Made by a program: the position numbers and the translations under genes | Notes under the pieces: generated by a model | What the model saw: the letters and a program-made list of their open reading frames with translations, nothing else | What the model was told of the DNA's origin: nothing | Databases searched by the model: none | Source of the DNA: Actinocrinis puniceicyclus | GTDB lineage: Bacteria; Actinomycetota; Actinomycetes; Streptomycetales; Catenulisporaceae | Length of the DNA: 43,215 nt | Direction: 5' to 3' | NCBI RefSeq assembly: GCF_018283645.1 | Contig: NZ_JAGSXH010000047.1 | Span: 1-43,215 of the forward strand | In this document: in pieces, positions 6,357-13,269 of the stretch | How positions within the stretch are numbered: position 1 is the stretch's first letter | Layout: each line of letters opens with the position of its first letter

Positions 6357-7451
6357 TCAGGCCGCGTCGCCGGGGCCGCGGTCGTGCGGTCCCTCGAACA
6401 GGTTCCGCAGGTCCGCCACCGCCCGGTCGATGATCGCCTTCGCCTCGGCCTTCTGCGTCTCGGACAGCGGTCCGTGGCGGCGCAGGCTGTCGAAGAAGGG
6501 GCCGGCGTCCCGGCGCACGCCCTCGAACAGGTCTCGAAGCTGCGGGCCGAACACCTCCCAGTCGAAGGGGCGCCGGCCGCCGCTCTTGCCGCCGCCCGGC
6601 TGACCGGGCACCGCGTCCTGCGGCTCGCCCGCGGGGGGCTGGTCGGCCCGTTCCCGCGTGCCGCCCTCCTCGTGACCCCAGAACGGCGCGCCGCCGAACA
6701 GCCAGGCCCACGGCGGTCCCGGCGGCTGACCCTGGCGCTGCCGGGCCCACTGCTCCTCCCACTGCTCCTTCCACTGGCGTGCCCACTGCTCCTTCCAGGC
6801 GCGCTGCCAGTCCTTCCACTGCTCGCGCTGCCCGCCCAGGTCGCGCTTCCAGTCCCGCCACTGCTCGCGCTGCTCGCGCTTCCAGTCGCGCCACTGGTCC
6901 CGGTCCCAGTCCGCAGACTCGGGCGGCGGGCCCCCGGGCATCGAGCGCCAGTCGAACGGCGCGCCCGGGCCCCAGGCGCCAGGCCGCGGGCCCGCACCCG
7001 CGGCCGAGCCGGCCCCGGTTCCGGCGCGGGCCGGGCCCTCGGAGGCTTCGCGCGCGGCCTGCAGCGCCGCTTCACGGGCCTCCGCCTCCAGCTCCTCGCG
7101 CACGGTGCGGGCGGACTCGCGCACCTCGTCGCGGATGCCCTCGGCCAGATCGTTGACCGAGTCGCGGATCTCGCTCTCCAGCGCCTCAAGTTCCTCGGCG
7201 CGCGCCGCCAGCTCGCGACGTCCGGCCTCGGTGATCTGGTAGACCTTCCGGCCCCCGTCCGTCTCGTGCCGCACCAGGCCCTCGGATTCCAGCCGGGCCA
7301 GGCGCGGGTAAACCGTGCCGGCGCTCGGCGCGTAGAGCCCCGCGAAGCGCTCACGCAACTGCTGGATGATCTCGTAACCGTGCCGCGGGCTCTCCTCCAG
7401 CAGCTTGAGCAGGTAAAGCCGTAGCCGGCCGTGGCCGAAGACAGGGGTCAT
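6357..7451 (-). CDS. PadR-family regulator with a long tryptophan-rich C-terminal extension
   Basis: A 364-residue protein. The PadR winged helix is at about 8-85 (LRLYLLKLLEESPRHGYEI, GLYAPSAGTVYPRLARLESE, GRKVYQITEAGRREL). A charged helix follows at 86-135 and an Ala/Gly/Pro linker at 138-180. Residues 182-235 form a highly charged, probably helical stretch with Trp every 3-4 positions for most of its length (RDWKREQREQWRDWKRD and QWARQWKEQWEEQW). In all there are 17 Trp between 160 and 258. A final helical segment (about 298-353) ends the protein. Typical PadR proteins are 110-200 residues. The ATG at 7451 overlaps the TGA stop of the upstream toastrack gene by 4 bp, so the two are co-translated. 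It probably represses its own operon through the palindromes at 8515-8554. Confidence 0.92.
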   Translation of the reverse strand: MTPVFGHGRLRLYLLKLLEESPRHGYEIIQQLRERFAGLYAPSAGTVYPRLARLESEGLVRHETDGGRKVYQITEAGRRELAARAEELEALESEIRDSVNDLAEGIRDEVRESARTVREELEAEAREAALQAAREASEGPARAGTGAGSAAGAGPRPGAWGPGAPFDWRSMPGGPPPESADWDRDQWRDWKREQREQWRDWKRDLGGQREQWKDWQRAWKEQWARQWKEQWEEQWARQRQGQPPGPPWAWLFGGAPFWGHEEGGTRERADQPPAGEPQDAVPGQPGGGKSGGRRPFDWEVFGPQLRDLFEGVRRDAGPFFDSLRRHGPLSETQKAEAKAIIDRAVADLRNLFEGPHDRGPGDAA

Positions 7452-8488
7452 CGCGCTTCCTCGCTGTTCTCGCCGTTTTCGCCGTCCGTGCCGGTCCCGG
7501 CCGGGTCCGTCGCGTCGGCGTGCGTGCCGTCGTGCTGTCCGCCCGGACCGCCGGCGTCGTGCGGCTGAGATGCGCCGCCCTGCGCCGTGTCGCCTCCAGG
7601 TACCGCGTCCTCGGGGACGGCGTCCTTCGGGTCTTGCCGGGCGGCGGGCCGCTCGTCCTCGACGAGCACGTCCCAGGGCTCTTCGTCGGCGCTGCGTCGC
7701 AGCAGCGTCACCGAGCCGGAGACCGTCTTGCCGGTCAGCACCGCGGTTCCGCCGCCCACCGTGCCGGTCAGCTTCTGCGAGCCGCGCATACCGCTGGCGC
7801 GCACCTCGGGGAAGGAGCTGACGGCCCGTCCGTTCGCGGTGCCGAGGTCCACGCGCACATCGGGGTCGTGCGGCAGCCGGACGGTCATCGCCCCCGACAC
7901 GCACTGCAGCTTCACCGACGAAGGCACCGGCTGCTCAAGGTCCAGCGCGATCGCGCCCGACACGGCGGACAGGTCGATCGCGCCGCCCGCCCCGGCGATC
8001 ACCGTGATCGCACCGGAGACCGCCTTGACCGCCAGGTCGCCGGTCACCTGCTCGGCGGTCACCGCCCCGGACACGGTCGAGACGCGCGCCTCGCCGTGCA
8101 CGCCCGCCAGCGTCACCTCGCCGGACACGCCCTTGACCGAGACGCGCTCGTGGAAGTTCGACACCACGACCGGGCCGGACAGGACCCTGACGTCGACCAG
8201 CGCGTCCGGAGGCAGCGCGAGCGAGAGCTCGACTTCCATCCGCTTGCCGGCCAGCAGCCACTGGAACAGTTGCGGCCTGGCGTACTCGCCGTGCCGCACC
8301 ACCAGCTCGCCGCTGTCCGACAGCTCGACCTGGAGCGGCGGTCCGCTCAGCTTGGTCACCTCCAGCGTGGCCGGGCCGTCCTTGCCGATGAGGTTGACTC
8401 GACCGGCCACGGCGCTCAGGCGCACCGAACGCACACCGTCACCCAGGGCCACCTGGTCCGGGTGCTCCAACTTCCAGCTCTCTGGCAT
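7448..8488 (-). CDS. DUF4097 / toastrack beta-repeat protein
   Basis: A 346-residue protein whose residues ~15-270 are a run of short beta-strands with recurring VSG signatures (VLSGPVVVSNF, VKGVSGEVTLAG, VSTVSGAVTAEQ, VKAVSGAITVI, LSAVSGAIALDL, CVSGAMTVRL). This is the pattern of the DUF4097 'toastrack' domain. The last ~75 residues are an acidic, Gly/Asp-rich tail that looks disordered. There is no signal peptide or membrane helix, so it should be cytoplasmic. Family knowledge: toastrack domains are often encoded beside PadR regulators in stress-sensing modules, as here, where the stop overlaps the padR start by 4 bp. GGGAGG lies 9 nt before the ATG. Biochemical role unknown. Confidence 0.88.
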   Translation of the reverse strand: MPESWKLEHPDQVALGDGVRSVRLSAVAGRVNLIGKDGPATLEVTKLSGPPLQVELSDSGELVVRHGEYARPQLFQWLLAGKRMEVELSLALPPDALVDVRVLSGPVVVSNFHERVSVKGVSGEVTLAGVHGEARVSTVSGAVTAEQVTGDLAVKAVSGAITVIAGAGGAIDLSAVSGAIALDLEQPVPSSVKLQCVSGAMTVRLPHDPDVRVDLGTANGRAVSSFPEVRASGMRGSQKLTGTVGGGTAVLTGKTVSGSVTLLRRSADEEPWDVLVEDERPAARQDPKDAVPEDAVPGGDTAQGGASQPHDAGGPGGQHDGTHADATDPAGTGTDGENGENSEEAR

Positions 8489-8514: not shown

Positions 8515-8532
8515 GACGCGATGTATCGCGTC
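8515..8532. promoter_or_regulatory. Palindromic operator 1 upstream of the toastrack-padR operon
   Basis: Arms gacgcgat and atcgcgtc around a central gt make an 18-bp near-perfect palindrome, 26 bases upstream of the toastrack start. It shares the core CGAT-AT-ATCG type with operator 2. Probable PadR binding site by position and symmetry. Confidence 0.65.
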
Positions 8533-8544
8533 TCTGTAAAACCA

Positions 8545-8554
8545 CGATATATCG
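8545..8554. promoter_or_regulatory. Palindromic operator 2 upstream of the toastrack-padR operon
   Basis: cgatatatcg is a perfect 10-bp palindrome. Its centre is 26 bp from that of operator 1, about two and a half helical turns. CGATATATCG-like cores are typical of PadR targets in actinobacteria. Confidence 0.65.
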
Positions 8555-8651
8555 CGTTGCCGGGAAGTCAAGCCACGGGCGGCGACCGCCGCCGCCCGGC
8601 CGCCGCGACGTGCGGAAACGCCCTCTGCGGCCGGCGGGGGTGCCGCGCTGG

Positions 8652-8834
8652 TCAGTCGTCCTCTTCCGCGTCGTCCAGCCGCGCCAGCCACGTGGCCAGC
8701 CGCTCGATCGGCGTTTCGAACTCCGGGTTGAGGTCGACGAACTCGCGCAGCCGCTCGGCGACCCAGGCGAGTGAGACCATTTCCTCGCCACGCCGATCGT
8801 CGAGCTCTTCGATGCCGCGGTCGGTGAAGTACAC
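8652..8834 (-). CDS. Small conserved actinobacterial protein (DUF6104-like)
   Basis: A 60-residue acidic protein starting with YFTDRGIEELDDRRGEE and ending in ERLATWLARLDDAEEDD, with FVDLNPEFETPIERLA in the middle. It matches what I remember as DUF6104, a short protein conserved in Streptomyces and relatives and of unknown function. The GTG start at 8834 was chosen because GGAG lies 8 nt upstream and the family begins at this YFTDRG motif; an ATG further upstream would add an unconserved stretch. It stands alone between kgd and the toastrack operon, all on the same strand. Confidence 0.75.
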   Translation of the reverse strand: MYFTDRGIEELDDRRGEEMVSLAWVAERLREFVDLNPEFETPIERLATWLARLDDAEEDD

Positions 8835-9010: not shown

Positions 9011-12000
9011 TCAGTCGGCGAATGCCTCTTCCACCACCCGGTGCTGCTCCACCTCGTGCCGCTTGGCCGAGCCGACCGCGGGCGAGGAGGAGGCCGGGCG
9101 CGAGACACAGGTCAGCGCTCGCCCGCCCAGTTCGGCCGGCAGGTTCAGCGCGATGAACGGCCAGGCGCCCTGGTTTGCCGGCTCCTCCTGCACCCACCGC
9201 ACCTCGGCGCCGGCCGGGTACTTGCCGATCTCCGCCAGCAACTCAGCCGCGGGCAGCGGGTACAGCCGCTCGGCGCGCAGGATCGCCGTGTCGGTGATGG
9301 CCTGCTTGCCGCGGCGCGCGGCCAGATCCCAGTAGACCTTGCCGGAGCACACCAGGATCCGCCGCACCGCCTCGGGCTGCACGCCGGCGTCACCGAGCAC
9401 CGGCTGGAAGCCGCGGTGGGCGAACTCCTCGATCGAGGAGGCCGCGGCCTTCAGCCGCAGCATCGACTTCGGCGTGAACACCACCAGCGGCTTGTGCGCC
9501 GGGTTGTGCGCCTGCCAGCGCAGCAGGTGGAAGTAGGAGGACGGCAGCGACGGCATCGCCACGGTCATGTTGTTCTGGGCACACATCTGGAGGTACCGCT
9601 CGATCCGGGCCGAGGAGTGGTCCGGTCCCTGACCCTCGTATCCGTGCGGAAGCAGCAGTACCACGCCCGAGTGCTGGCCCCACTTCTGCTCGCCGGAGGA
9701 GATGAACTCGTCCACGATGGTCTGCGCGCCGTTGCCGAAGTCGCCGAACTGCGCCTCCCACAGCACCAGCGCCCCGGGACGGGCCACCGAGTAGCCGTAC
9801 TCGAAGCCCATCGCGGCGAACTCGGAGAGCATCGAGTCGTACACCGAATACGTGGCCTGGTTCTCGGACAGGTACGACAGCGGCGTGTACTCCTTGGCCG
9901 AGTGCCGGTCCACGATCACGTGGTGCCGCTGGACGAAGGTGCCGCGCCGCGAGTCCTGGCCGGTGAGACGGACCGGCACGCCCTCCATCAGCAGCGAGCC
10001 GAAGGCGAGGGTCTCACCCATCGCCCAGTCGATCGTGCCGTCGGTGACCATCTGCGCCCGGCGCTGGAGCTGGGGCACCACGCGCGGGTGCGCCTCGAAG
10101 CCCTCGGGCAGGTTGACGTGCACCTCGACGATCCGCTTGACCACCTCGTCGCTGATCGCGGTGCTCACCGGAACCGGGAACGGCACGCCGTCCTCGGTGT
10201 GCCCGTTGAAGGTCAGCGACGACGCGTCCGTCTTCGGCGCGCTGTCCTTGGTCTCCGCGAAAACCTGCTCCAGCTTCGACTGGTAGTCCTTGAGCGCGGC
10301 CTCCGCCTCGTCCAGGGTGATGTCGCCGCGGCCGATCAGCGCCTCGGTGTAGAGCTTGCGCACCGAGCGCTTGGCCTCGATCAGCTGGTACATCAGCGGC
10401 TGGGTCATCGACGGGTCGTCGCCCTCGTTGTGCCCGCGCCGCCGGTAGCAGACCATGTCGATCACGACGTCCTTGTTGAACGACTGGCGGAACTCGAAGG
10501 CCAGCTGGGCGACTCGGACGCACGCCTCGGGATCGTCGCCGTTGACGTGGAAGATCGGCGCCTCGACCATGCGCGCCACGTCGGTCGCGTACACCGAGGA
10601 GCGCGAGAAGACCGGCGAGGTGGTGAAGCCGACCTGGTTGTTGATCACCAGGTGGATCGTGCCGCCGGTGCGGAACCCGCGTAGCTGCGACATGTTCAGC
10701 GTCTCGGCGACCACGCCCTGTCCGGCGAACGCGGCGTCTCCGTGCATCAGGATCGGCAACACGGTGAAGGCGGTGCCGGCCTTGTTGATGATGTCCTGCT
10801 TGGCCCGCACGTAGCCTTCGAGGACCGGGTCCACCGCCTCCAGATGCGAGGGGTTGGCCACCAGCGAGACCTTGATCTGCTTGCCGGAGAGCGCCGTGAA
10901 GGTGCCCTCGGTGCCCAGGTGGTACTTCACGTCGCCGGAGCCGTGCATCGACTTCGGGTCGAGGTTGCCCTCGAACTCGCTGAACACCTTGCCGTACGGC
11001 TTGCCGACGATGTTCGTCAGGACATTGAGACGGCCGCGGTGCGGCATGCCGATCGCGGCCTCGTCCAGGCCCTGCTCGGCGGCCGCGGAGATGATCTGGT
11101 CCAGCAGCGGGATCGCCGATTCGCCGCCTTCCAGCGAGAAGCGCTTCTGGCCGACGTACTTGACCTGCAGGAAGGTTTCGAACGCCTCGGCCGCGTTGAG
11201 CCGGTTGAGGATGCGCAACTGCTCCTCGCGGGTCGGCTTGGCGTTGCCGGCCTCCACCTTCGACTGGATCCAGCGGCGCTGCTCCGGGTCCTGGATGTGC
11301 ATGTACTCGATGCCGACGGTGCGGCAGTACGAGTCGCGCAGCACCCCGAGGATGTCGCGCAGCTTCATCAGCGGCTTTCCGCCGAAGCCGCCGGTGGCGA
11401 ACTCGCGCTCCAGGTCCCACAGGGTCAGCCCGTGCGACACCACGTCGAGGTCGGGGTGGCGGCGCTGCTTGTACTCAAGCGGGTCGGTGTCCGCCATCAG
11501 GTGCCCGCGGGTGCGGTAGGAGTCGATCAGCTCGATGACGCGCGCCGTCTTGCTGATGTCGTTCTCGTGCGAGGCGGGGATGTCCTGGATCCAGCGCACC
11601 GGCTCGTACGGGATGCGCAGCGACTCGAAGACCTTGTCGTAGAACCCGTCCTCGCCCAGCAGCAGCCGGTGGATCGCGCGCAGGAACTCGCCGGACTGCG
11701 CGCCCTGGATGATGCGGTGGTCGTAGGTGGAGGTCAGCGTCATGACCTTGCTCACCGCGAGGCGCGACAGCGTCTCCTCGCTCGCACCCTGGTACTCGGC
11801 GGGGTACTCCATGGCCCCGACGCCGAGGATCGCGCCCTGACCCTTCATCAGGCGCGGCACCGAGTGCACGGTACCGATACCGCCCGGGTTCGTCAGCGAG
11901 ATCGTGGTGCCGGCGAAGTCGTCCGCCGTCAGCTTGTTGTTGCGCGCCTTGCGGACGATGTCCTCGTAGGACTGCCAGAACTCGCGGAAGTCCATCAGTT

Positions 12001-12850
12001 CCGCGGCCTTGATCGAGGGCACCACCAGCGAGCGCGAGCCGTCCGGCTTGGTCACGTCGATGGCCAGGCCGAGGTTGACGTGCTCGGGGGTGACCACCGC
12101 GGGCTTGCCGTCGACCTGGGCGTAAGAGGCGTTCATGGCCGGCATGGCCTTGACCGCCTGCACCATCGCGAAGCCGATGAGGTGGGTGAAGGAGACCTTG
12201 CCGCCGCGGGCGCGCTTGAGGAAGTTGTTGACCACGATGCGGTTGTCGATCAGCAGCTTCGCCGGGACCGCGCGCACGGAGGTGGCTGTCGGCAGTTCGA
12301 GCGAGACCTCCATGTTCGACACGACCCGGGCGGCCGGGCCCTTGAGCACGGTGGTCTGCGAGCCGCCGCCGGCGGGCGTGGAGGCGGCGGGCGGAGCGGT
12401 GATCGCGGCGTCGCGCGGCACGCCGCTGGCCGGGGAGACGGCGACCGGCGTCGGCTTGGCGGCGATGCCGTCGGGCGCGGCGGGCGTGGCCGGCTCGGCA
12501 GCGGGCGTGGGCGCGGCGGGTGCCGCCGGCCCTGCCGTCGGCGCCGGTGCGGCTGAAGCGGGGGCCGCGGCCTGCCGGGCCGGCGCGCTGGGGCGCTGGG
12601 GCGCGCTCGTGGCCGGCGTGCTCGCCGCCGCCGCGGTGGCGGCGGTGTCGGTCGGCTGGTAGTCGGCGAAGAAGTCCCACCACGCCTTGTCCACGGAGGC
12701 CGGATCGCGCAGGTACTGCTGGTAGATCTCATCGACGAGCCACTCGTTGGGCCCGAACTCGGCCGCTGTGTGCGCGGCGGGGTGGTTCGGGCCCCCCTGC
12801 GCCGGCTCTGTCGAGGTCGATGTGGACGCTGACGTGGACTGTGGCGACAC
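9011..12850 (-). CDS. kgd: Multifunctional 2-oxoglutarate decarboxylase / dehydrogenase E1 with fused E2-like domain
   Basis: A 1279-residue TCA-cycle enzyme of the actinobacterial Kgd/OdhA type. Residues ~31-64 are the E1o N-terminal region ([19 protein letters not shown]). An Ala/Pro linker occupies ~65-170, and no lipoyl domain is present. The E2-like succinyltransferase domain spans ~175-400, with catalytic [10 protein letters not shown] at ~374-383. The rest is the thiamine-diphosphate E1, including [28 protein letters not shown] and NNQVGFTT, then the transketolase-like C-terminus ([20 protein letters not shown]). The GTG at 12850 was chosen by the conserved family start (VSPQS); its ribosome binding site is weak. 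In relatives an FHA protein (GarA/OdhI) inhibits the enzyme; no such gene is in the window. It is a single-gene unit with its own terminator. Confidence 0.97.
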
Positions 12851-13269
12851 GGCGGGTTCCGCCCTCTTCCGCTTCGTAGATCCGTGTTCTATGGCTGTGC
12901 CGGTGAACAGCCGGATGCCAGGTGGGGCGCCCGCATGCATGAATAAAGCCCTGCGGGAACTCCCAGCGGGCAGCGGTCATCCAGATTACGCCCTTTTCCG
13001 GGCCGATCGCCGCTTGTCGCGCTGAACAGCGACGAGTATCACACTGTCCACCGCGTTTACCACCCAGGAAGATGGTAGCCGGATAGCCCGGAATGACTAC
13101 AGCTGGATGAGCCGCGAACGAGGCGTGCGGAGCCGTGTGCGCCGAGTCATCGCACTGCGCCGGGCCGGCCGGCCGACCGCGTTCGCGACCTTCGCCGTTC
13201 ACCCTTGGTTCAACGGCACCGCGCATGCCCGCATTCCGTGCGAATCCACGCGTCGTCTCGATCGCCGTC
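12851..13269. other. Intergenic region upstream of kgd
   Basis: 419 bases between the kgd start and the sensor kinase stop; the neighbouring genes are on the same strand, so this carries the kgd promoter. TGTGATACT on the minus strand near 13040 could be an extended -10, but no matching -35 is clear. GGCGG/CCGCC just before the GTG could form a small stem over the ribosome binding region. No convincing gene is seen. Confidence 0.4.

What the first reader, a model, noticed from the sequence alone, without database searches (positions are those of the whole stretch)
6747..6974. Tryptophan-zipper-like charged helix fused to a PadR repressor
Residues 182-235 of the PadR protein have Trp at 182, 187, 190, 198, 201, 212, 215, 219, 223, 227, 231 and 235, mostly 3-4 apart, separated by Arg/Lys/Glu/Gln. 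There are 17 Trp within residues 160-258. On a helix this puts an indole stripe along one face. Ordinary PadR proteins stop near residue 110-200. Such a stripe could bind membrane, nucleic acid or the acidic tail of the co-translated toastrack protein. The function is inference; the pattern is seen directly.
Basis: partly seen in the sequence, partly recalled or inferred. Interest (0 to 1): 0.6.

Follow-up and report, generated by a model that had tools for sequence, protein, structure and literature searches.

The report
Conserved tryptophan-striped helix in PadR repressor
A bacterial gene repressor carries an extra long helix with tryptophans lined up along one side; the spacing is kept, probably by selection, in two separate branches of actinobacteria, most likely so that helices can pack together, although what it contacts is not yet known.

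Summary
It is not chance or mere slippage: W columns are 95-97% conserved against 57-75% for other columns across genera. Gaps between Trp are almost all 3, 4, 7, 8 or 11 residues (106/117 against 50±5.5 expected). In Catenulispora pN/pS across the stripe is about 0.10. AlphaFold2 predicts one helix, residues 184-239 (pLDDT 80-90). The stripe occurs in two separate clades, the window's family and a Streptosporangiaceae clade, at the same place between PadR domain and C-terminal helices. Intervening lineages (Streptomyces, Micromonospora- and Nocardiopsis-type) lack it. All 64 orthologues, striped or not, follow a Toastrack gene; most have a GATAYATC operator-like site upstream. The stripe is therefore a lineage-specific accessory of an ordinary, probably autoregulated Toastrack-PadR pair. 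Its period (3.67-3.75, hendecad-like) matches the neighbouring arm helix, so I favour Trp-lined helix packing; membrane contact is the main rival. Binding to the Toastrack acidic tail is disfavoured, because striped Streptosporangiaceae lack that tail. Partner and function are inferred, not shown.

The parts
6357..7451 (-). PadR-family regulator CDS (364 aa): wHTH 1-74, long arm helix 75-137, Pro/Gly-rich linker, Trp-stripe helix 184-239, low-confidence linker 249-296, C-terminal two-helix domain 298-352
   Evidence: Pfam PadR E=1.5e-23; AlphaFold2 secondary structure; orthologues
6747..6908 (-). Trp stripe, W182 to W235 (12 Trp)
   Evidence: translation and positions; conservation
6735..6902 (-). 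predicted single helix 184-239
   Evidence: AlphaFold2 pLDDT 80-90; homologous helix 160-206 in the Catenulispora model at lower confidence
6746..6896 (-). short tandem DNA repeats (12, 24, 33 and 42 bp units), the likely route by which the stripe lengthened
   Evidence: Tandem Repeats Finder
7041..7229 (-). arm helix 75-137, hydrophobic period about 97-98 degrees per residue (hendecad-like), present in all orthologue groups tested
7448..8488 (-). co-directional Toastrack (DUF4097) gene, product with acidic C-terminal tail; its stop overlaps the padR start (ATGA)
   Evidence: Pfam DUF4097 E=8.4e-9 and NCBIfam LiaG E=6.6e-16 below its cut-off; adjacency in 64/64 orthologous loci
8516..8531 (.). 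palindrome ACGCGATGTATCGCGT, candidate PadR operator 1
8542..8557 (.). near-palindrome CCACGATATATCGCGT, candidate PadR operator 2, 26 bp from operator 1 and overlapping the predicted -10 (8544-8549)

Best explanation
The gene encodes the repressor half of a conserved, probably autoregulated Toastrack-PadR operon. Between its DNA-binding domain with long dimerisation arm and its C-terminal helical domain, two actinobacterial lineages have built an extra long helix whose hydrophobic residues are almost only tryptophans in a hendecad/heptad register. The most likely working is helix-helix packing: the Trp stripe lies along another helix (the similarly long arm helix of the same chain, the stripe of the dimer partner, or another dimer) to make a Trp-lined coiled coil. 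This would stiffen or multimerise the repressor and could couple a signal at the linker or C-terminal domain to DNA binding at the paired operators. Shown: presence, conservation, phase and two-clade distribution. Predicted: helix. Inferred: packing partner, oligomerisation and signal coupling.
For: Helix predicted in the window protein and, less confidently, in Catenulispora. 106 of 117 W-W gaps over 16 distinct patterns are 3, 4, 7, 8 or 11, null 50.4 (sd 5.5). Length changes in the Streptosporangiaceae alignment are mostly 7-residue steps that keep phase. W columns are 95-97% conserved against 57-75% for other columns in cross-genus sets. pN/pS about 0.10 in Catenulispora. The stripe's moment peaks at 96-100 degrees in most stripes and the arm helix at 97-99 degrees in every lineage. 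In Streptomyces the region at this place is a long Ala/Arg/Glu-rich sequence with moment peaking at 99-101 degrees, which suggests a coiled-coil element whose core was remade in Trp. Stripe helix length (56 aa) is close to arm length (63 aa).
Against: Streptosporangiaceae stripes have only about one Trp per heptad in their N-terminal half, a thin core. The same periodicity would suit a lipid-facing 11-residue-repeat helix. Helicity in Catenulispora is predicted at pLDDT 55-61 only.
Confidence: 0.45

Rival explanations
1. Peripheral membrane sensor: the Trp stripe inserts at the lipid interface and brings the repressor to the inner face of the membrane, where the Toastrack partner is thought to assemble, so that envelope state controls repression.
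For: Toastrack is proposed as a sub-membrane signalling platform coupled to PadR-like regulators (PMC11237479). Strong amphipathicity (18-aa moments up to 0.75) and Wimley-White interfacial energy of about -0.5 to -8 kcal/mol for most stripes if helical. Lipid-binding helices of the alpha-synuclein type also use 11-residue repeats (and general knowledge).
Against: Net charge of the stripe is -3 in Catenulispora and only +1 to +4 elsewhere in the window's family, not the clear positive charge usual for helices that bind anionic bacterial membranes. Energies are marginal, and positive (+3) for one stripe (L074). Apart from one Leu and a few Ala the window stripe has no other non-polar side chains.
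Confidence: 0.27
2. The stripe docks on the Toastrack protein (its beta-helix surface or acidic tail), forming a repressor-antirepressor complex.
For: Toastrack gene immediately upstream on the same strand in 64/64 orthologous loci, mostly overlapping. Larger stripes go with more acidic tails overall (Spearman -0.37), driven by the window's own family.
Against: Striped Streptosporangiaceae Toastracks mostly have virtually no tail. Stripeless lineages keep the same pair. Only 1 Toastrack column is shared by the two striped groups against both stripeless groups, compared with 4 for the control split.
Confidence: 0.13
3. Neutral low-complexity expansion by replication slippage, with no function in the Trp residues.
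For: 12, 24, 33 and 42 bp tandem repeats in the DNA; variable stripe length between genera.
Against: W columns far more conserved than others, pN/pS about 0.10 in Catenulispora, in-register gaps in both clades. Slippage explains how the stripe grew, not why it is kept.
Confidence: 0.05
4. Tryptophan-supply sensor: a Trp-dense stretch makes translation of the repressor depend on charged tRNA-Trp.
For: 12 UGG codons within 54 codons.
Against: Such a sensor needs no helical phase, yet phase is kept across genera.
Confidence: 0.03
5. Aromatic-ligand (antibiotic) binding surface, by analogy with the Trp-lined drug site of LmrR-type PadR proteins.
For: PadR domain matches LmrR and Rv3488 folds; some PadR proteins sense planar drugs (general knowledge).
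Against: LmrR's Trp lies in the PadR domain dimer pore (general knowledge), whereas this stripe is a separate helix well beyond the domain; a 12-Trp stripe far exceeds a ligand site.
Confidence: 0.05

Closest known systems
PadR-family transcriptional regulators (PF03551; LmrR, Rv3488, LftR)
   Same: winged-helix DNA-binding domain and dimerisation helix; PDB sequence and fold matches
   Different: no listed PadR match in the PDB extends over the Trp stripe
Toastrack/PadR envelope-stress neighbourhoods and Listeria LltR operon (PMC11237479, PMC6624303)
   Same: PadR next to a DUF4097/Toastrack gene, likely controlling its own operon
   Different: no HAAS (DUF1700) domain was found in the window's pair; gene order is Toastrack then padR; no Trp stripe is described in the passages read
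Designed tryptophan-zipper coiled coil (PDB 1T8Z, Liu et al. 2004, cited in PMC4619341)
   Same: helix with Trp as core residue at heptad-like spacing
   Different: designed heptad pentamer; the natural stripe is hendecad-like, mixed 4/7/11, and its oligomeric state is unknown
Alpha-synuclein-type 11-residue-repeat lipid-binding helices
   Same: about 3.67 residues per turn
   Different: Trp instead of small and aliphatic residues, near-neutral charge, bacterial regulator

Membership tests
PadR family | PadR winged-helix domain | tested here: met
   PF03551 E=1.5e-23, above cut-off; Foldseek hits to PadR structures
PadR family | DNA binding / repression of own operon | not testable with these tools
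   Conserved GATAYATC-type sites at the operon promoter in 43/63 loci support it indirectly
Toastrack (DUF4097) partner system | Toastrack gene adjacent on the same strand | tested here: met
   DUF4097 E=8.4e-9; 64/64 loci
HAAS-PadR dyad | HAAS (DUF1700/DUF1048) domain in the partner | tested here: not met
   Only DUF4097 found in the partner, no HAAS in either protein
Tryptophan-zipper coiled coil | helix with Trp in coiled-coil register | tested here: met
   helix predicted; gaps 3/4/7/8/11; hendecad-like, not strict a/d heptads
Tryptophan-zipper coiled coil | Trp-Trp packing in an oligomer | not testable with these tools
   no complex prediction offered
Membrane-binding amphipathic helix | favourable interfacial energy with net positive charge | tested here: inconclusive
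   energy -0.5 to -8 kcal/mol in most, +3 in one; window-family charge -3 to +4

The most novel reading that the evidence does not exclude
A natural tryptophan-zipper coiled coil, evolved independently twice at the same place in the same repressor family, that multimerises a PadR regulator and acts as its signal-responsive switch. Recurrent evolution would make it a natural model for a fold known from design.
Probability: 0.25. Interest if true: 0.72.

Novelty: new variant of a known kind. Interest (0 to 1): 0.5.

Why it matters
Trp is the costliest and rarest residue, yet two actinobacterial lineages keep a long helix with up to 12-18 Trp in register. If it packs as a Trp-lined coiled coil it is a natural counterpart of a designed fold; if it binds membrane it gives the Toastrack-PadR envelope pair a physical sensor. 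Either result would say how a widely conserved but uncharacterised actinobacterial operon is switched.

Tried and rejected
Slippage-only origin: rejected by conservation and pN/pS. Acidic-tail docking: disfavoured. Co-variation of Toastrack or PadR-domain columns with the stripe: no signal above control. Mobile module: a stripe profile matched only three places in 79 genomes, all at PadR orthologue loci, and the segment had no second copy in the own genome; the profile's sensitivity is limited. Pfam and NCBIfam gave no family for the stripe. Paper searches found no PadR protein with a Trp-rich helix. Several order/class genome searches failed on the server and were counted, and one was misaimed at the wrong genome. 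In one search the third query had a mistyped prefix and is not used.

Full report
OBSERVATION. The PadR gene runs on the minus strand from 7451 to 6357 (364 aa). Trp positions are 160, 168, 182, 187, 190, 198, 201, 212, 215, 219, 223, 227, 231, 235, 248, 250, 258 and 298, exactly as reported. The density is far beyond chance (p 1.7e-13 at 1.5% Trp), and no other open frame of the window exceeds 9 Trp in 99 residues. The DNA here carries 12, 24, 33 and 42 bp tandem repeats, so short duplications probably lengthened the segment.

STRUCTURE. Pfam gives PadR for residues 14-82 (E 1.5e-23) and nothing over the stripe. AlphaFold2 with nine aligned sequences predicts helices 7-20, 25-35, 44-56, a long arm 75-137, the Trp helix 184-239 (pLDDT 80-90) and C-terminal helices 298-326 and 331-352, with low confidence in linkers 140-172 and 249-296. 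The Catenulispora orthologue gives the same layout with lower confidence (helix 160-206, pLDDT 55-61). The Foldseek matches are PadR-type DNA-binding domains. Only confidence and secondary structure were available, so packing was not inspected.

CONSERVATION. In the window's family all eight distinct complete Catenulispora-type proteins have gaps 5,3,7,4,4,4,4,7,11, and three Actinospica-type proteins have an expanded version (for example 5,3,11,11,7,4,4,4,4,7). Streptosporangiaceae orthologues have 11,7,7,7,4,4,4, or 7,7,7,4,4, or 7,11,4,4. Over 16 distinct patterns, 106 of 117 gaps are 3, 4, 7, 8 or 11; random placement gives 50.4 (sd 5.5). W columns are 95% conserved against 57% for other stripe columns in Streptosporangiaceae, and 97% against 75% in the window's family as a whole; within Catenulispora alone the difference is not significant because the whole stripe is conserved (p 0.066). 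Across the stripe in Catenulispora pN is 0.025 and pS 0.250. Selection therefore acts on the protein.

DISTRIBUTION. Orthologues were found in 13/14 family genomes and in 51/51 genomes of the order containing the Streptosporangiaceae set. In the class sample 48/98 genomes had a match of E 1e-15 or better, of which about 22 besides the window are orthologues by score. In a tree of the PadR domain (first 125 residues) the striped proteins fall mainly into two groups: the window's family (support 99) and one Streptosporangiaceae group (support 91). They are separated by Streptomyces, Micromonosporaceae and Nocardiopsis-type proteins without it; two further proteins (L094, L112) pass the 5-Trp threshold with different motifs. 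The tree needs at least three changes, with at least two forced by strongly supported branches. Either gain in parallel or an old stripe lost several times is possible; many inner branches are weak. Taxon names for coded genomes are inferred from size, kinship and the named loci. Streptomyces orthologues have at this place a long Ala/Arg/Glu-rich sequence with only two closely placed Trp (14 apart), whose hydrophobic moment peaks at 99-101 degrees. A stripe profile matched no other protein in 79 genomes.

CONTEXT. The Toastrack (DUF4097) gene lies directly upstream on the same strand in all 64 distinct orthologous loci, striped or not, often overlapping by ATGA. Upstream of it the window has two palindromic sites, ACGCGATGTATCGCGT (8516-8531) and CCACGATATATCGCGT (8542-8557); the second overlaps the -10 of the only promoter-like match (8571-8544). 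The GATAYATC-type core recurs at this place in 43 of 63 loci. This is strong indirect evidence that the PadR protein controls its own operon. Toastrack has been proposed as a sub-membrane signalling platform paired with PadR regulators (PMC11237479), and in Listeria loss of LltR control strongly raises an operon with a DUF4097 gene (PMC6624303).

MECHANISM. The stripe follows about 96-100 degrees per residue, hendecad-like, and the arm helix has the same period (97-99 degrees) in all lineages. The stripe and arm have similar length. Together with the Ala-rich counterpart in Streptomyces this favours packing between helices (0.45). The alternatives are membrane contact (0.27), Toastrack docking (0.13), ligand binding (0.05), neutral repeat (0.05) and Trp-supply sensing (0.03). 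The acidic-tail idea fails as a general account because most striped Streptosporangiaceae have almost no tail, and no Toastrack columns track the stripe beyond the control.

VERDICT. A real, selected and unusual element on an otherwise ordinary regulator: a new variant of a known kind. Its partner is undetermined and directly testable with a peptide.

Noticed in passing
8516-8531 and 8542-8557: Paired near-palindromes with GATAYATC-type core, conserved upstream of Toastrack-padR across the class: candidate PadR operator overlapping the promoter. A genome-wide regulon scan was not possible.
   Followed up: partly
8652-8834 (minus): DUF6104 protein (60 aa, E 6e-37) between the 2-oxoglutarate dehydrogenase gene and the Toastrack gene.
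   Followed up: no
9011-12940 (minus): Fused E2-E1 2-oxoglutarate dehydrogenase (Kgd type) upstream of the operon on the same strand.
   Followed up: no
L066, L070, L073, L076, L079: Streptomyces orthologues carry a long Ala/Arg/Glu-rich segment with hendecad-like period where the Trp stripe lies in the window's family.
   Followed up: partly
L071, L078, L103, L106 and similar: Nocardiopsis-type orthologues carry a short shared motif of the form WxREWxRFxQGFGAFGAxW at the same place, followed by long low-complexity tails.
   Followed up: no
L099, L116, L117 and other Streptosporangiaceae loci: Differences in stripe length are mostly 7-residue steps, so the helical phase is kept through insertions and deletions.
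   Followed up: partly
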